From Pirellulaceae bacterium (GTDB taxonomy: Bacteria; Planctomycetota; Planctomycetia; Pirellulales; Pirellulaceae), in assembly GCA_030748485.1 (NCBI GenBank), contig JASMLW010000485.1, positions 1 to 38,636 of the forward strand: a stretch of 38,636 nucleotides of DNA. The letters are read 5' to 3'. This document shows positions 31,716 through 38,636 of this stretch, piece after piece (position 1 is the stretch's first letter; every line of letters begins with the position of its first letter). The notes below the pieces were generated by a model. The model saw nothing but the letters and a program-made list of their open reading frames with translations. It ran no database searches and was not told the origin of the DNA. The position numbers and the translations under genes are program-made.

Positions 31716-33305
31716 CTACCAGAACTTCCACCACGGCTTTTTGTCGGGTGGCGGATCGCGCCGCACCGGGTCGGGTCCAACGGTGTGCTGCGAACCGCCC
31801 TGCGCGGGCTTCGCCGCTGGCGCGTCCGCACCTTGCTCCGCCGCGACGATCGGCGGGGTCTCGCTGGCCAATGGCCGCGGTTGCCAGCGCGGCCGCGGTT
31901 GGTGCTCGGCCTGCCGGCGGCCGTGCTTCTCGATAATGGCCGCCACCCGCGCTTGAAAACGCCGGCCCTTCTCGGGATCGACCATGGCGACGAAATTCGC
32001 GTAGCCCTCGATGCTGGCGATCACATCATCGCCGCCGCCCCAGTGCTTGCCCGCCGGACCCTCGCGCTCGACTTGATGGAGCACGGCTCGGAATCGCCTC
32101 AGGTCTTTTCGCGAGACGGCGACGCGCTCGTTGACAGTCAGGCCGGTTACTTCCTGTCGACGACCAGGTCTGAGAATCCTGGTCTTCCGCGGATGAATCG
32201 TGAAACCTTCCTCGCCGACGACGAAGCGGGCCCGCCGCAACAGTTGACCGACTCGTTCATTCGCGGCGGCGTCGCCGGAGAACGTCAAGTCATCGGCGTA
32301 CCGCGAATAGCGAAAACCGAGTTTGACGGCCAAGCTCTGTAGCCTGGCGTCCATTCCCCGACAGAGGATGTTGGTGATGGCCGGACTGGTCGGCGCGCCT
32401 TGGGGCAACCGCCGCTCGCTGGTCGCCACGTGGTAGGTGTCTCCATCCACCGTGACTTCTTTGCGGTCGGGCTCTGTACACACCAAGGCGAACAAGGTGG
32501 CGACCGACTCGCTGAAGCCGAGGCTGCGGAACAGCCCTTTGACTCGTGGATAAGTCACCGTTGGAAAGAAGTTCTCGAGGTCGAGATTGACGACCACCGC
32601 GGCCCCGACATGCGGCTCGGCGTTGGTCACGATGGAGCGCCCTTTGCGGAAGCCGTGCACCGCCTCGTGCAACTCGACATTTTCGAGCAGGCTGTGGAGG
32701 ATCCACTCTTGAACGCGTTTCAATCGGGGCATGGGCGCCGAGATCGTCCGCACGCCGCCCGTCTTCTTGGCGACGGTGAACTGCCGATAGTGGCTGATTC
32801 GCGAGGTCTTTCGATGAAAGGCGAGAAACCGCAACTCACCGATCGGCACGCCCATCGCGTCGGCCACTTCGACCGGCGTCCGCAACACGGGAAGCCGCTG
32901 TCCGTCGAGCCGCGACTCGTCGGGGTCGTCCTCCTGGAGCCCGCCCGAAACGCCAGCTCCCAAATAGGTCAACTCGCGCCGCTTCCGCTCCCGGTGCTGC
33001 TCAACCCGCCGTTGCTGATCGGCGACCTTCTGTTCTTTGCGCTGCTGCCGCTTGCGGCGCGACTCCTCCATCCGTTCTTGCCGCAACCTCCGTTTCAGCG
33101 CATCGGCGTCAGCGAGCCGGTTGCATTCGGTGAGCAGCGAGCGCATCTGCTTTTCCAGCTCCGCTCGACGGCGAACTTCATCGGCCGGGTCGTGAGGCGT
33201 CTCGCCGGCCGGCGGCCAGAATCCAAGCCGTATCATCTCCTCCAAGATGACTTCGTCCTTCGACGTGGCGCGAATGCGGTCGTAGATCTCTTGTCGCGTA
33301 GTCAT
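31716..33305 (-). CDS. Retron-type reverse transcriptase
   Basis: 529 residues from ATG 33305; the frame is open to a TTG at 33380, but that extension would overlap the a2 arm of the adjacent ncRNA, so the shorter form is chosen. Ribosome binding site: GGCGG at about 8 bases; AAAGGG is too close. Residues 40-115 are a highly charged Arg/Glu/Gln-rich extension, likely coiled coil. The RT domain spans about 160-400. It has the retron signature NAEPH (228-232, NAxxH motif), LDLENFFPTV with catalytic Asp242, LPQGAPTSP (300-308), RYADD with Asp338/Asp339, and VTG (386-388) of the retron Y region, followed by the GYANFVAMVDPEKG thumb segment. The tail (about 465-529) is Pro/Ala-rich and ends WWKFW. 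It should reverse-transcribe the neighbouring ncRNA into branched msDNA. It lies downstream of the ncRNA units, the WH-SWIM gene and the WGR/HEAT gene. Confidence 0.95.
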   Translation of the reverse strand: MTTRQEIYDRIRATSKDEVILEEMIRLGFWPPAGETPHDPADEVRRRAELEKQMRSLLTECNRLADADALKRRLRQERMEESRRKRQQRKEQKVADQQRRVEQHRERKRRELTYLGAGVSGGLQEDDPDESRLDGQRLPVLRTPVEVADAMGVPIGELRFLAFHRKTSRISHYRQFTVAKKTGGVRTISAPMPRLKRVQEWILHSLLENVELHEAVHGFRKGRSIVTNAEPHVGAAVVVNLDLENFFPTVTYPRVKGLFRSLGFSESVATLFALVCTEPDRKEVTVDGDTYHVATSERRLPQGAPTSPAITNILCRGMDARLQSLAVKLGFRYSRYADDLTFSGDAAANERVGQLLRRARFVVGEEGFTIHPRKTRILRPGRRQEVTGLTVNERVAVSRKDLRRFRAVLHQVEREGPAGKHWGGGDDVIASIEGYANFVAMVDPEKGRRFQARVAAIIEKHGRRQAEHQPRPRWQPRPLASETPPIVAAEQGADAPAAKPAQGGSQHTVGPDPVRRDPPPDKKPWWKFW

Positions 33306-33318
33306 GCCCTTTGCCGCC

Positions 33319-33356
33319 GCGATCCTGGTGATGTGCTGCGATCCTGGTATTGTGCT
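33319..33356. repeat. 19-bp tandem repeat between ncRNA and RT gene
   Basis: GCGATCCTGGTGATGTGCT at 33319-33337 is followed directly by a copy with two changed bases at 33338-33356. The second copy overlaps the end of the a2 arm of ncRNA unit A. It sits in the untranslated leader of the RT gene. Confidence 0.85.
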
Positions 33357-33578
33357 GGGCGACCCGCTCGGCCTTCGCAAGGCTCTCTGGACTGGGCCGT
33401 CTCAACTCAAGCGGATTGCCTCCCGTAGCGATGTTCAATTCGCGGAATTCAAACCGGAACGTCGCTACGGGAGGTATATCCGCACAGTCAAGAGCGGACC
33501 AGTGATGCGGTTCAAAACACTCGGCATGGATGGCGATACGCCATCCGGTTGCAAGGCTCACCGAGCGAGTCACCCAGC
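33354..33578 (-). ncRNA. Candidate retron msr-msd RNA, unit A (next to the RT gene)
   Basis: Read on the minus strand. The 5' a1 arm (33578-33561) pairs with the 3' a2 arm (33371-33354) over 18 bases: plus-strand GCTGGGCGACCCGCTCGG against GCTGGGTGACTCGCTCGG. The two differences give G-U pairs in minus-strand RNA only. After a1 comes GAGCC, whose AGC may hold the branching G. Then a hairpin (arms 33546-33539 and 33535-33528, 8 perfect pairs, 3-base loop) and a 77-base core shared with unit B. The msd hairpin (33419-33474) has a perfect 13-bp stem CCTCCCGTAGCGA/TCGCTACGGGAGG and an inner AATTC/GAATT hairpin. It lies 48 bases upstream of the RT start, the usual position for a retron ncRNA. Confidence 0.85.
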
Positions 33579-33607
33579 TGTACTGAGCTGTCCGAAACTA
33601 GTGGGGA

Positions 33608-33834
33608 GGCGCGGCGGCCGAACTCACCTTCGCAAGGCTCTCGGGACTGGGGCGTCTCAACTCAAGCGACCTGCGATACCGTCGATCATCTAGTCCTCGG
33701 GATTCTAACCGAGATGTCGACGGTATCGCGTTGGTCGCACAGTCAAGAGCGGACCAGTGATGCGGCTCAAAACACTTGGCATGGATGGCGATGCGCCACC
33801 CGGTTGCAAGGCTCGTGATTCGAACCGCCGCGCC
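33608..33834 (-). ncRNA. Candidate retron msr-msd RNA, unit B (next to the WH-SWIM gene)
   Basis: Read on the minus strand. The a1 arm (33834-33815, GGCGCGGCGGTTCGAATCAC) pairs with the a2 arm (33627-33608, GTGAGTTCGGCCGCCGCGCC) over 20 positions with only two mismatches; three pairs are G-U and would be lost in plus-strand RNA. The sequence after a1 repeats the GAGCC of unit A. The conserved hairpin (33801-33794 with 33790-33783) has one A-to-G change that keeps pairing as G-U on this strand. The msd hairpin (33674-33728) has a perfect 12-bp stem CGATACCGTCGA/TCGACGGTATCG and an inner CTCGG/CCGAG stem; its sequence is unlike that of unit A. It lies 33 bases past the WH-SWIM stop codon, 29 bases before unit A. 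Confidence 0.82.
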
Positions 33835-33867: not shown

Positions 33868-35535
33868 TCAATTGACCCAAAAGATGGCGTGACCGTCTTG
33901 TTCGTGTTGGTGGTGCTGCATCCGCAGCGCCAGGATATGTTGGCAGGGACCTTTGCGGAGACGATTCTGCCGATGCCAGTTGCAGGTGCAATTCGCGCCG
34001 ACGATTCGCTGGTCGGCGTCGATGCGCAGCGACACTTGTTCGTGGCGGGTCACATCCGAAACCGACCCGCTGATGATGACGAAGCCGCCGCCCTCTTCGG
34101 CGCGGGCGATCAGCGCCTGACCGCGATCGACAAACTGTTGGGCAGCTTGTTCGCGCTCATTGACGAATCGCAAATCGCTGACCGCCAGCGGCTCGCGGCT
34201 CAACTCGCGAGCCCGATAGACGTTCTGCTCCAAGTCCCAGATGGCTCGCCCGGCTTGCGAGTACGCGCCGAGCGCGCCGAGCACGGTGGCTCGATCCAAC
34301 TGGAGTCGGGCCGCCAAAGCGTCCGGCGACTCCCGCCAGTTCTCTTTTAAAGCCGTGAAAACTCTCTCCTTGGTCGTCGTGTCGACCTCGCCGCGAGGAG
34401 CCAGCAGATCAAAGTTGCCGCTCGCCGACCAGTCGTTCGCTGTCCAGCCCGACAACCCCAACGTAAACGACATGTCACCCAAGTCGGCCACGTAAAACGA
34501 AGGCATGCCCGAGCCCAAAAGATGGACGGTGAAGCTCCGCGCCAACGGAATCAGCCGCTCGAGAATGTGGAGACGACGCCTTCCCCAAACGCGAATCTCG
34601 TGCTCCTGTTCGCCCAAATATTCGGACCGCGGACAAGGGATCTCCCACCCCCACGGATCCAGCACCACCGTCACCGGTTCGCCCGGCTTCAAGCGGTAAC
34701 GCAATGAGCGGGGACCGAGAACCTCTTTCTTTCTCCGCAATGCGAAGCAGATATTGTGAATATCCATCGGGTGCAAGCGGCAAGCGACCGCCGGCAGCGA
34801 CATCGCCGAACTGACTTGCAGGAAACCCCGCACCCAACTGTCGGGCAGATCGATCTTCACTTCTTTGTAGGAGGGCTCCGCCGACGTCTGGACTTCGAAT
34901 CCGGTGGGATCGACTTCGAACTGCGTGCGCTTGTAGCTGCGAATCTTCTGGAACTCGTCGTAGAGGTCGGACGAGTAGTCGATGTTCGTCGTCCCGCACG
35001 CGAACTCGCCCACGTTGCGAAACACGTCCAATCCGACACTCAATCGGCCGTAGCTCGATTCGTCGCGGCTGAAGCACTCAAAGAAAACTTGATCCGGGTG
35101 TACTGTGATCACGGGGTCGAGCACGACCCAAGCGTTGTAGTCGCGGACGAAGATATAGCGGAAGTACTTGGCCTGAGCGCGGTAATAATCGGCCATGCGG
35201 CTGTCGTGTCGCCGCCGCAGAGAATCCAATTCGGCGCGAACATCTTGCAGTTGGCGTTGCACGGTCGCCTGTTGTGCCGCCACCTGCGCCGCCTCCTCCT
35301 CGTCGCGCCGCTCGGCCCAAGCCAAGTAGGAGCTGCGGTCCTTCGGCGCCCAGCGCAAGTCGGAAATCACGACATCGTGCAAGGCGCTGATGGCTTCGCG
35401 AAACTCGACAGGCTTGCCGAGCTCTCCGCGAAAGTACGTCGGCGGCCGCAGCGTGTCGGGAGCGAACGACATTTGCGTGTCTCGCGCGCCGCTGTAGACG
35501 GACGTGTCTTGGGCGTAGCCGTAGGCGAATTCCAT
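33868..35535 (-). CDS. Winged-helix and SWIM zinc-finger protein of the retron
   Basis: 555 residues. The ATG at 35535 directly follows the TAG stop of the WGR/HEAT gene, so the two are translationally coupled. Residues 75-112 look like a coiled coil. A central domain (about 115-380) has no motif I recognise. Residues about 385-445 form a winged helix: TTTKERVFTALKENW, then SPDALAARLQLDRATVLGALGAY and a beta wing ending GRAIWDLEQNVYRAREL. The C-terminus carries a SWIM zinc finger, C516-x-C518 with C531-x-H533 in the C-x-C-x(n)-C-x-H pattern, a module that binds DNA or proteins. I recall WH-SWIM proteins as retron accessory genes; here it precedes the ncRNA and RT on the same strand and is the likely nucleic-acid sensor or effector (inference). 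Confidence 0.88.
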   Translation of the reverse strand: MEFAYGYAQDTSVYSGARDTQMSFAPDTLRPPTYFRGELGKPVEFREAISALHDVVISDLRWAPKDRSSYLAWAERRDEEEAAQVAAQQATVQRQLQDVRAELDSLRRRHDSRMADYYRAQAKYFRYIFVRDYNAWVVLDPVITVHPDQVFFECFSRDESSYGRLSVGLDVFRNVGEFACGTTNIDYSSDLYDEFQKIRSYKRTQFEVDPTGFEVQTSAEPSYKEVKIDLPDSWVRGFLQVSSAMSLPAVACRLHPMDIHNICFALRRKKEVLGPRSLRYRLKPGEPVTVVLDPWGWEIPCPRSEYLGEQEHEIRVWGRRRLHILERLIPLARSFTVHLLGSGMPSFYVADLGDMSFTLGLSGWTANDWSASGNFDLLAPRGEVDTTTKERVFTALKENWRESPDALAARLQLDRATVLGALGAYSQAGRAIWDLEQNVYRARELSREPLAVSDLRFVNEREQAAQQFVDRGQALIARAEEGGGFVIISGSVSDVTRHEQVSLRIDADQRIVGANCTCNWHRQNRLRKGPCQHILALRMQHHQHEQDGHAIFWVN

Positions 35536-38500
35536 CTAGCGGCTCTCCAACACGGCCAGGCGGACCGGTGATTCGATTTCGGGATGCTGATCGCGGATCG
35601 CGGTCAGCGTTTCGATCGCCAGCGCTTTGTCGCCAATGGCGCAGGTGGCCGAAACGCGGCCGAGCACGTCGACCGCCACGCGGGCGAACTCGGCGTTCCT
35701 GGTCGCCTCCTGCGCGATGAATGCAAACACGCGCTGTTTGGCGACGCGGCCGCGGTTGACGCGCGACAACACCGAGACAAAGAACGGACTAAGCGAACGA
35801 AACCGTTCCAGATTGTCGACTGCGTAGGCCTCCAAGTAATTCGTGGCGAAAAGCTGCAACGAACTCGTCGGGTGCTCGCTCAACTTGAGCAAGTACTCGG
35901 GGCCGTCCACTGCGCGAAACCGGCGTGTGATCAACTCGCGGCCGAACTGTTGCACATCCGGCTTGGGGCTGTCGCAAATGGCGACGAGAATCTCGGGCGT
36001 CAGCTCGTCGTCGCGAAACTTCTCGCGAAAGAAGGTGAAGAAGTACTGTCTCGAGTCCTCCCACCTGGCGTCCAAGACTCGCATCGACGTCGCCAGCGCC
36101 GTCCTCATCCGGTCGAGGTCATCCGCGAACATCCGCCAACTCGCCTCGCGAACAGAGCGGACGTCGTGGCTGGCCAGATCGACAAGCTGCTCGACCTGCA
36201 GCGAACTGGGCGGCAAGTTGGCCCCCAGCAGCGCGCCGCCGACTTCTTGCGCCGGCTGGCTGCGGGAACGCAGCAATCGCCATATCGTCTCGGCTCCAAT
36301 CTCTCCCAGATGGTCGAGCAGATCTTCCCGCAGCACTCGCGCCGTATGGCTCGGCACACCCTCGGCGGCGCCGGGAATCAAAATGGCGTCGACCAGCGCG
36401 GCCGCGATGCGTTTTCCAAAGGCGGCGTCTGATTGAGCCAGCTCGCGCACCGTTGGACGAATCTCCGCTCGAATGTCCGCCTGCGGATGGCGAGAGAGTT
36501 CGATCAGCAGTTCGATGCTGTTCTTGAGAACGGACGCGGGCAGCCCGGCGACGATGCGCACGGCCGCTTCTCGAACGATCGCTTCATCGTCCGCCAGCAG
36601 CGCCTTGACCAGCTCCATCGGCGGCTCGGCGGCCAGCGTCTGATGAGCGGCGATCAGATCGCCCGCGAACCGTCGCACAGCTGGGATCGAGCTGGACATC
36701 AGGTCGCCAATGATCTCCACGCCCACCTGAGCCAACTCGCGGCGATAAACCGAGTGCAACGTCAGGGCGACGTCCGCGGCGATCTCTGCTTGATCGGCAG
36801 CCGCGTCCGTCAAGAAACCGATCAGCCGACCGATCAGCGCCTGGGAAACCTCGGGACCAATCGTGACCGCTTTGAGCACGTCGCGAGCGTAGAGCCGGAT
36901 GTCGGCGTGGGGCGCGGACACCACGCCAAATGCGAAGCTGCTGTCGGCAAAGAAGAACTGGCGGTTCTGATCGATCCAGGTGCAAGCCATCTTCCGCCCC
37001 CGCTCGACGACGCATTGCGCGAGCAACAGCACCAAATCTGGATCGGGCTGACTGGGATCGTAGGCGACGGCCGCCGCGTCGACGCCCAAATCCACCGTCA
37101 CGTTGTAGGGTGCTTCCAACAACACGCGGAGGCCGGGCGTCTCGAGCGACCGCAGGAAATCTGGATGAGCGCGAAGGACTTTGGCGGCGAACGCGTGGAC
37201 CGATTCGCAGCGGCTGCCGGCGACCAAAGGCATCACCGCCCCAGGCTCGCGGTCCCACAAATTGGCGAACGCCTCTTCGCGCCCCGTCGGCGCGGAGGCT
37301 CCGGGAGAGTACCCGCCCACACAACAGAACGACTTGCCGTCGGCGACCGGCCGGTAGCGGTTGCTATTCCGGTAAAGCAGTTGATTGAAAGCCCAATAAC
37401 GATGGAATCGATCGTAGTGGACTTCGCGACTCTGGTAAGTCGAGTAGTCCCAGCAAACGCCGGTCGTCGGCTCGCCGCCGTCGTCATCGACAAAAGGCAG
37501 CAGAGCGCCGACGGCCATCGACAAATAGTGCCGGCTTTCCAACTCGCCCAATCTCCGCAACGTCCGCCAGATCCGCTTGCGAAAGTAATCGCGAGTCTGC
37601 GTGCTGTAAGCGGCGGTCGCTTCGGGACCGATGGTCGGCTTGCTGACCTTGCGCCAGCGAAATGTCCATTCGCTCGGCATGCGAAAGTTGCCGGGCGTCA
37701 CTTCAAAGCGTCTCGCAATGACCCCGAAAGTCGCGGCGTCCCAACGAACTTCGGCCCATTTGAAGATCCGCCTGATCCGCAAGAACCCGTGCACTTGAAA
37801 CGGCTCCCGGCCGAGAATCTCGAGCAAGATCGGCTGCAGCCGGTCGTTGTTGACGAAGTAGAGCCGTTCGATCAGTTGCCACCACGACGCGGCTCCGGCG
37901 CCGCGCTGGTTCTCGATTTCGCGCCGCAGCTCGTCGAGCTCGCCTTGGTGGATCAACGGTTGAATCGACTCGGGCAGCGAATCGATAGCGCGGCCCATCA
38001 GTTGCGATCGCAGGCCGTCGTCGGCGACATTGCGCATCGCCTCGAGAGCCATCCGGCGCACGTGGACCGAACGAGATTCGTTGCCGTGAATCGCGCGGAG
38101 GTGGTCGATGCTCGCCATCGAACCGCACCGCGAGAGGGCGGCCGCCGCGCAGTAGTCGAGCATCTCTCCGCCCTGGCCGATCAGCGCCGCGATCGCACTC
38201 TCCGCGGCCGCCAACTCCAACTCACCGGCTCGCCAAACAGCTCGCGTCAGCGGCCACCGCGAACTCGACCGCAGGCCGTCCGAAATCCGCGTCATCACGG
38301 CCGCGTCTCGCGGAGACAGCGGCTCCGGCTCGGGGCGCGCCGGCTCGCGGCGCGGGGCGGGTGGAGCATTGGGAGTCAGGTCCGGGTCGATCAACCCCGC
38401 TGGGGGCGAAGCAACCGGTTGTTCGCCGGCGACTCGATAACCCGCGGCGATCTTGGCTGAGACGAGTTCGTCGTAGATGCGTACCGCCTGCTCGCGCGTA

Positions 38501-38636
38501 ACAGACGCCACGGTGCGCGTTCCGTCGCGCAGCGCGGAACCCGCGCGGCCAAAGCGGAAATTGACAACGAATTGATCGGGGCCAACCTCGCAAAGGTCGA
38601 CCTCGTATACTTTCTCAACTCGACCTTCGGTGAGTA
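35536..38636 (-). CDS. WGR-domain and HEAT/ARM-repeat protein of the retron, 5' end outside the window
   Basis: At least 1032 residues are visible and the start is beyond the right edge; the GTG at 38511 lies inside a domain and is not the start. The first visible part is a WGR domain: EGRVEKVYEVDLCEVG, QFVVNFRFGRAGS and then REQAVRIYDELVSAKIAAGY, where F-G-R replaces W-G-R. A Pro-rich linker leads into a long array of helical repeats of the HEAT/ARM type through most of the protein (for example AFAAKVLRAHPDFLRSL, VRRFAGDLIAAHQ, IVREAAVRIVAGLP, VRSVREASWRMFADDLD, DVQQFGRELITRRFR). WGR domains bind nucleic-acid ends or partners in PARP-like and MolR-like proteins. The stop codon abuts the WH-SWIM start, so the two subunits are made together and probably form a complex. 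Confidence 0.87.
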   Translation of the reverse strand, partial: LTEGRVEKVYEVDLCEVGPDQFVVNFRFGRAGSALRDGTRTVASVTREQAVRIYDELVSAKIAAGYRVAGEQPVASPPAGLIDPDLTPNAPPAPRREPARPEPEPLSPRDAAVMTRISDGLRSSSRWPLTRAVWRAGELELAAAESAIAALIGQGGEMLDYCAAAALSRCGSMASIDHLRAIHGNESRSVHVRRMALEAMRNVADDGLRSQLMGRAIDSLPESIQPLIHQGELDELRREIENQRGAGAASWWQLIERLYFVNNDRLQPILLEILGREPFQVHGFLRIRRIFKWAEVRWDAATFGVIARRFEVTPGNFRMPSEWTFRWRKVSKPTIGPEATAAYSTQTRDYFRKRIWRTLRRLGELESRHYLSMAVGALLPFVDDDGGEPTTGVCWDYSTYQSREVHYDRFHRYWAFNQLLYRNSNRYRPVADGKSFCCVGGYSPGASAPTGREEAFANLWDREPGAVMPLVAGSRCESVHAFAAKVLRAHPDFLRSLETPGLRVLLEAPYNVTVDLGVDAAAVAYDPSQPDPDLVLLLAQCVVERGRKMACTWIDQNRQFFFADSSFAFGVVSAPHADIRLYARDVLKAVTIGPEVSQALIGRLIGFLTDAAADQAEIAADVALTLHSVYRRELAQVGVEIIGDLMSSSIPAVRRFAGDLIAAHQTLAAEPPMELVKALLADDEAIVREAAVRIVAGLPASVLKNSIELLIELSRHPQADIRAEIRPTVRELAQSDAAFGKRIAAALVDAILIPGAAEGVPSHTARVLREDLLDHLGEIGAETIWRLLRSRSQPAQEVGGALLGANLPPSSLQVEQLVDLASHDVRSVREASWRMFADDLDRMRTALATSMRVLDARWEDSRQYFFTFFREKFRDDELTPEILVAICDSPKPDVQQFGRELITRRFRAVDGPEYLLKLSEHPTSSLQLFATNYLEAYAVDNLERFRSLSPFFVSVLSRVNRGRVAKQRVFAFIAQEATRNAEFARVAVDVLGRVSATCAIGDKALAIETLTAIRDQHPEIESPVRLAVLESR

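What the first reader, a model, noticed from the sequence alone, without database searches (positions are those of the whole stretch)
33354..33834. Two tandem, complete retron ncRNA units in front of one reverse transcriptase
Two 188-bp modules with identical architecture lie in tandem between the WH-SWIM gene and the RT gene, each enclosed by its own 18-20-bp terminal inverted repeat. Each has a shared msr-like core, one conserved small hairpin and one long central hairpin. Known retrons, as far as I recall, use one msr-msd per RT. Here one RT would process two different RNAs and make two different msDNAs. This is the strongest candidate for an undescribed arrangement in the window.
Basis: partly seen in the sequence, partly recalled or inferred. 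Interest (0 to 1): 0.95.

Follow-up and report, generated by a model that had tools for sequence, protein, structure and literature searches.

The report
Retron with tandem DNA-sensor RNA units
One reverse-transcriptase gene of a retron (a bacterial system likely used against phages) sits behind two tandem RNA units that share one scaffold but carry different hairpin stems, and one relative has four, so one enzyme would likely make several different DNA sensors instead of the usual one.

Summary
Minus-strand units 33608-33834 and 33354-33578 each have an a1/a2 terminal helix, an msr hairpin, a shared core and a long msd hairpin. They lie between SWIM_XIII and one RT_XIII gene, so this is a type XIII retron.

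A covariance model from 40 units finds the same ncRNA in 58 of 61 close loci, with massive covariation. Usually there is one unit. I found 8 arrays in 85 loci: seven with two units, one with four, each in front of one RT and interspersed with single-unit relatives in the RT tree.

Likely mechanism, untested: one RT makes two msDNAs with different duplex stems, widening what the complex can sense. No listed paper describes tandem msr-msd units. Verdict: a real, recurrent new variant of a known system.

The parts
33608..33834 (-). ncRNA unit 1 (first in the transcript): a1, msr hairpin, shared core, msd hairpin, a2
   Evidence: fold z -6.95; model match 33638-33806, 152.7 bits; a1/a2 -41.6 kcal/mol
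33354..33578 (-). ncRNA unit 2 (next to the RT): same architecture, different msd stem and different a1/a2
   Evidence: fold z -8.87; model match 33383-33551, 152.9 bits; a1/a2 -47.4 kcal/mol
33579..33607 (.). 29-nt spacer between the two units
   Evidence: from the fold limits; sequence printed
31716..33305 (-). retron reverse transcriptase (529 aa, ATG at 33305): NAEPH at 228, YADD at 336, VTG at 386
   Evidence: PADLOC RT_XIII E 6.1e-186; motifs; nearest solved structure Ec86 RT, E 7.7e-44
33868..35535 (-). SWIM_XIII protein (555 aa): predicted PCNA-type clamp fold (residues 34-366), winged-helix-like H-H-H-E-E pattern (386-442), SWIM zinc finger (502-537)
   Evidence: PADLOC SWIM_XIII E 1.9e-229; model; fold matches; Pfam SWIM just under cut-off here, found in 26 of 35 alignment members
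35536..38634 (-). WGR_XIII protein (1032 aa, runs to the window edge): WGR plus HEAT-repeat superhelix; no enzyme domain recognised
   Evidence: PADLOC WGR_XIII E 0; no Pfam hit in the window protein itself; among 31 alignment members WGR in 12, HEAT_2 in 19; model

Best explanation
The stretch 33354-33834 holds two tandem, structurally complete type XIII retron ncRNA units on the minus strand in front of one retron reverse transcriptase, and that enzyme is predicted to copy both into two msDNAs that share the scaffold but would differ in the sequence of their duplex stem. Shown by sequence: the anatomy, conserved covariation, different msd stems in the two units, and each a1 matching its own a2 best. 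Inferred: both units are transcribed with the RT; each folds on its own because its a1 and a2 do not fit the neighbour; the RT reads the common msr and core and makes both msDNAs; RT, msDNAs, the clamp-fold SWIM protein and the WGR-HEAT protein form one complex. Most likely function (untested): each stem is a bait that a phage DNA-binding or DNA-modifying protein can act on, as reported for other retron types, so that two stems widen the range of infections that trigger the system.
For: Type XIII gene set. Fold z-scores -8.9 and -7.0. Family-wide structure: 94.8% of cells paired against 66.6% in shuffles, covariation 0.751 against 0.199 shuffled and at most 0.148 when slid (the alignment was fitted to the model, so it leans that way). 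Both window units score alike, 152.9 and 152.7 bits. Window msd: 29 and 28 pairs, 27 at shared positions, of which 10 identical, 15 changed on both sides, 2 on one side (that count sees only pairs that form in both units, so it cannot count pairs lost). a1 fits its own a2 best in 18 of 18 array units. Arrays recur: 8 loci with 2 to 4 units; five of them were not in the model. Stems of array mates are less alike (0.56-0.71 in 5 pairs, 0.64-0.77 in 4 pairs) than stems of different loci in the same bins of scaffold identity (means 0.88 in 33 pairs, 0.94 in 63 pairs), p 0.0006 and 0.0003. Retron RT motifs present. Literature for the sensing step: a phage N6A methyltransferase as trigger, with its GATC motif in the reverse-transcribed region of one retron (PMC12548924, passages); phage HTH protein D5 binding the msDNA of a type IX retron (PMC13405049, passages including part of the abstract); commentary on msDNA as sensor (PMC13158370, first of two parts of the text).
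Against: No RNA or msDNA data; no sigma-70-type promoter in the stretch (such a scan says little here). 77 of 85 loci manage with one unit. Stems of orthologous single units are mostly conserved: in Bradyrhizobium 0.93-1.0 alike at RT gene identity 0.86-0.96 (0.85-0.89 for pairs with L039); 0.77-0.78 in two Pseudanabaena pairs. So strong stem divergence is a feature of arrays, not of the family. The p-values use related, non-independent pairs, and in the lower scaffold bins array mates (one pair each, L048 and L116) are no different from other loci. The stems match nothing in the host genome beyond two-mismatch hits and the units match no phage record, so no target is named. Palindromes in stems are not clearly enriched (6-mers: p 0.0965 and 0.015 by two nulls). 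One array unit (L115 unit 1) has a weak a1/a2, -16.4 against -15.1 crossed.
Confidence: 0.7

Rival explanations
1. One unit is a recent duplicate that is no longer used and is drifting.
For: Most type XIII loci have one unit (77 of 85). Array mates are nearest to each other in 17 of 18 units, which fits recent duplication.
Against: A drifting copy should lose pairs. The two window msd hairpins keep 29 and 28 pairs, 27 at shared positions, 15 of them changed on both sides (pairs lost are not counted there, but the totals leave room for one or two at most). Both units score equally with the family model. The a1/a2 helices also differ in step.
Confidence: 0.1
2. Two units raise the dose of one functional msDNA; the stem sequence is free to drift as long as it pairs, and differences between mates are kept only because identical long inverted repeats in tandem would recombine or cross-pair.
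For: Pairing of the stem is conserved while its sequence is not. Orthogonal a1/a2 is needed for any tandem arrangement. The commentary PMC13158370 says mature msDNA sequences tolerate variation.
Against: The scaffolds, up to 79 nt at 95% identity, were left as recombination substrates. Mates with scaffold identity of 0.9 or more have stems at 0.56-0.77, from the random floor (0.58) upwards and below other loci of equal scaffold identity.
Confidence: 0.3
3. The two msDNAs are structural partners: different stems occupy different places in one asymmetric complex, rather than being two sensors.
For: Retron complexes can be asymmetric (type IX Kva2, PMC13405049, passages), and the clamp fold of the SWIM protein suggests a ring.
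Against: Close relatives of array loci have one unit (L117 with two beside L005 with one, support 100/99; L114 with four beside L010 with one, 99/96), so a second msDNA is not needed to build the complex.
Confidence: 0.12
4. The repeats are DNA-level elements (cruciform or binding sites) and not an RNA.
For: The plus strand folds nearly as well; no transcript is known.
Against: In front of a retron RT and in its direction in the loci whose genes were examined, with retron a1/a2-msr-msd order, and G-U pairs in the msr hairpin on the RT's strand.
Confidence: 0.03

Closest known systems
Retron type XIII (PADLOC RT_XIII, SWIM_XIII, WGR_XIII)
   Same: All three proteins match, at E 6.1e-186, 1.9e-229 and 0; same gene order as most relatives.
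   Different: Two ncRNA units instead of the single unit in 77 of 85 loci; different msd stems and terminal helices per unit.
Single-unit retrons such as Ec86 (Eco1) and Eco2
   Same: a1/a2 ends, msr hairpin, long msd hairpin; the Eco2 description (PMC12405507, passages) matches this anatomy, and NAXXH is described as a retron motif (PMC6868368, passages; VTG is recalled). Ec86 RT is the nearest solved structure.
   Different: One ncRNA per RT there (recalled); different accessory proteins.
PCNA-type sliding clamps
   Different: 7-15% identity in the listed alignments, fused to winged-helix-like and SWIM parts, encoded in a retron operon; ring formation and DNA loading untested.
CRISPR arrays (likeness of logic only)
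   Same: Several units with a common scaffold and an exchangeable sequence part served by one enzyme.
   Different: No acquisition machinery seen, no known source of the stems, not a guide as far as shown.

Membership tests
Retron (general) | Reverse transcriptase with retron motifs NAXXH (region X) and VTG (region Y, recalled) | tested here: met
   NAEPH at 228, YADD at 336, VTG at 386 in the window RT; NAXXH in 79 of 79 and VTG in 78 of 79 tree rows, window included
Retron (general) | ncRNA with complementary 5' and 3' ends (a1/a2), msr hairpin and msd hairpin next to the RT | tested here: met
Retron (general) | Conserved branching guanosine after a1 | tested here: inconclusive
   A YTTG motif near the a1 end in 54 of 62 units; which G primes cannot be told from sequence
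Retron (general) | Production of a branched RNA-DNA molecule (msDNA) | not testable with these tools
   needs wet work
Retron type XIII | RT_XIII, SWIM_XIII and WGR_XIII (HEAT) genes together | tested here: met
   gene order
Retron type XIII | The ncRNA common to loci of the type | tested here: met
   Model R1, built from 40 units of the window and 36 loci, matches 58 of the 61 loci L004-L064, 22 of which had not supplied a unit; no Rfam family matches at E up to 1. Whether the original typing paper drew this ncRNA was not seen
Single-ncRNA retron (the usual layout, as recalled) | One msr-msd per RT | tested here: not met
   two units in the window, 2 to 4 in eight loci
PCNA-type sliding clamp (SWIM_XIII residues 34-366) | Clamp fold | tested here: met
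   predicted model only
PCNA-type sliding clamp (SWIM_XIII residues 34-366) | Ring assembly around DNA | not testable with these tools
   needs a complex structure

The most novel reading that the evidence does not exclude
Type XIII retrons include multi-sensor retrons: arrays of two to four msr-msd cassettes with insulated ends and exchangeable duplex stems, all served by one RT and presented through a PCNA-fold clamp / winged-helix / SWIM protein. Each stem is a separate DNA bait for a different class of phage protein, so the array is a stored, expandable repertoire of phage sensors.
Probability: 0.35. Interest if true: 0.93.

Novelty: new variant of a known kind. Interest (0 to 1): 0.8.

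Why it matters
How retrons recognise phages is still being worked out, and in several retrons phage proteins are reported to act on the msDNA. Natural arrays in which mainly the stem and the insulating ends differ are a ready-made comparison: same RT, same effectors, near-identical scaffold, different stem. They make the role of the stem directly testable. For biotechnology, an RT that serves several insulated units would be a natural multiplex source of single-stranded DNA. The predicted sliding-clamp fold in the accessory protein links a retron to the replication machinery by structure.

Tried and rejected
Rfam: no family at E up to 1. Phage records: no DNA match to the units; the RT matches there (55 records, none covering 80% of the query, the ten listed at 24-37% identity) are distant. 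Plasmids: one RT at 50.8% identity. Viral contigs: two distant RTs. Stem sequences elsewhere in the host genome: only two-mismatch hits, two for one stem and one for the other. Stems as restriction or methylase palindromes: not clearly enriched, p 0.0965 by shuffling and 0.015 by column shuffling for 6-mers. A reading of stems as hypervariable in the whole family was dropped: one search suggested it for Chitinophaga, but one search showed shifted alignment columns, and (50 close pairs of single-unit loci) shows mostly conserved stems. Remnant units in the long gaps of L115 and L048: none beyond the two. A second retron-like locus of the same genome (L132) has no unit of this kind. Promoter scan: no sigma-70-type site. 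In ten searches of print (one search lists 25 of 776 hits) no listed paper is about tandem msr-msd units or a type XIII ncRNA; text searches inside PMC12548924 and PMC12262390 found no 'XIII', 'tandem' or 'two ncRNA'. The original typing paper was not seen. Parts of SWIM_XIII outside 34-366 were barely tested by fold comparison, and no fold search was run for the WGR-HEAT model.

Rows dropped before counts: L001, L119 and L127 repeat the window, L048 and L006. Of loci L004-L064, L057, L059 and L062 have no unit by the model. Weak or partial model hits in G200, G233, G637, G924, G1235, G1307 and at G407:C631 and G397:C531 were not counted. L124 is left out of the tree (RT cut by the contig end). 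The 12 new Myxococcota loci were counted from the model hit alone, without looking at their genes.

Full report
What is there. Between the SWIM gene (33868-35535, minus) and the RT gene (31716-33305, minus) lie two tandem units. On the minus strand each starts with a1, then an msr hairpin (GGGTGGCGCATCGCCATCC and its like), a helix CACTGG/CCAGTC, a core, a long msd hairpin, and a2. Unit 1 is 33834-33608 and unit 2 is 33578-33354. Both fold far better than shuffles (0 of 200 in each case). They are 95% identical over 79 and 42 nt on the two sides, but their msd hairpins and terminal helices differ.

What system. PADLOC names the three genes RT_XIII, SWIM_XIII and WGR_XIII. The RT carries NAEPH, YADD and VTG; NAXXH is the retron motif described in PMC6868368 (passages seen), VTG is recalled. 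The Ec86 RT is its nearest relative among solved structures. So this is a type XIII retron.

Relatives. A scan of genome contigs with the RT gave 80 loci, of which L004-L064 are the close ones; 55 of these 61 have a SWIM match in the stretch held. I aligned 40 units from the window and 36 of the loci. The consensus has 36 of 40 pairs with changes on both sides, and a covariance model was built from it. Over the window and 83 loci it finds a strong unit in 58 of the 61 loci L004-L064, 22 of which had not supplied a unit. With later units included, 77 distinct rows give 94.8% paired cells and a covariation score of 0.751 against 0.199 in shuffles and at most 0.148 with slid partners. Terminal helices are conserved as structure, not sequence: own-partner duplex energy averages -44.2 against -26.4 for crossed loci, and 35 of 930 crossed duplexes reach the median of the own ones; in 61 of 62 units the own duplex beats the mean of the crossed ones, the exception being L009.

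Units per RT. Counting only matches of 59 bits or more, I have 85 distinct loci: 58, the window, 12 more and 2. Eight are arrays: the window, L004, L048, G430, G472, G1064 and G1092 with two units and G767 with four at spacings of 253-257. In each array locus one RT was found next to the units. The samples behind the later searches were 392 genomes of the window's phylum, 397 of its class (overlapping), 396 of the phylum of L048 and 377 of the phylum of L014. All 18 genomes with a match in the last set show one match. Such large calls score only seven candidates per genome, so further units could be missed.

History. In the RT tree arrays are scattered among single-unit loci: G1064 beside L005 (100/99), G472 beside G484 (99/95), G767 beside L010 (99/96), and G1092 in a distant clade on a long branch. 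Several gains or losses are needed; weakly supported forks leave the number open. In 17 of 18 array units the nearest scaffold is a mate in the same array (the exception is in L048), so either the duplications are recent or scaffolds are kept alike by conversion.

What differs between mates. Within arrays scaffold identity is 0.72-0.98, but stem identity is 0.53-0.77 on a random floor of 0.58. Different loci with scaffold identity 0.90-0.95 or above 0.95 have mean stem identities 0.88 (33 pairs) and 0.94 (63 pairs), against 0.56-0.71 (5 pairs) and 0.64-0.77 (4 pairs) within arrays; at 0.85-0.90 the figures are 0.68 (58 pairs) against 0.53 and 0.58; in the two lower bins the single array pairs (L048, L116) do not differ from other loci. 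Pairs are related, so the p-values (0.0006, 0.0003, 0.02) are optimistic. Stem changes keep pairing: 15 of 27 shared pairs in the window changed on both sides, 2 on one side, and the other 12 comparisons hold one one-sided change in all. That count sees only pairs formed at the same place in both units (11 to 30 of 26 to 32 pairs), so lost or shifted pairs are not in it. In 18 of 18 units a1 pairs best with its own a2; the margin is thin only for L115 unit 1. In single-unit orthologues stems are mostly conserved (50 pairs), so the strong divergence is a feature of arrays.

Mechanism. Retron msDNAs are reported to be where phage proteins act: an N6-adenine methyltransferase with a GATC in the reverse-transcribed region of one retron (PMC12548924, passages, where methylation of the RT-DNA is the authors' suggestion) and the HTH protein D5 of T5 on a type IX msDNA (PMC13405049, passages); PMC13158370 (first of two parts) reviews the sensor view. 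Against that background the simplest reading of units with one scaffold, insulated ends and different stems is that one RT makes several sensor DNAs. The steps from RNA to msDNA to sensing are inferred. Dose and structural roles remain open rivals.

Novelty. In ten searches of the open-access library no listed paper is about tandem msr-msd units behind one RT or about a type XIII ncRNA. The founding classification of retron types was not seen, so the type XIII ncRNA itself may be known; the arrays are, to my knowledge, not.

Noticed in passing
33868-35535 (SWIM_XIII): Predicted PCNA-type sliding-clamp fold over residues 34-366 of the retron accessory protein, followed by a winged-helix-like stretch and a SWIM finger.
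   Followed up: partly
L114:7104-8040: Four tandem ncRNA units with four different stems and four matched a1/a2 pairs in front of one RT (G767).
   Followed up: yes
L004:1706-1756: A 21-bp perfect inverted repeat (GTAGGGTGCGTGCAACGCACC) between the two units; looks like a separate hairpin element.
   Followed up: no
L115:7678-8310: A 210-aa ORF between a two-unit array and its RT; recalled likeness to Uma2-type nucleases, not tested.
   Followed up: no
L004: The record is titled Candidatus Nealsonbacteria, but the genome is 9.1 Mb and its RT groups with planctomycete RTs: probably misnamed or mis-binned.
   Followed up: partly
L002 / L132 (own genome, contig C618) and L003 (C245): Two further retron-like RTs in the same genome; the one on C618 has a distant SWIM relative beside it but no unit found by the model.
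   Followed up: partly
L015, L016, L060: Pseudanabaena loci have a single unit and RT, the WGR gene on the other strand and no full SWIM gene next to the RT.
   Followed up: no
L128, L129: Divergent retrons in the genomes of L022 and L030 with a distant unit (62-66 bits) and a WGR relative but no SWIM match in the stretch held.
   Followed up: no
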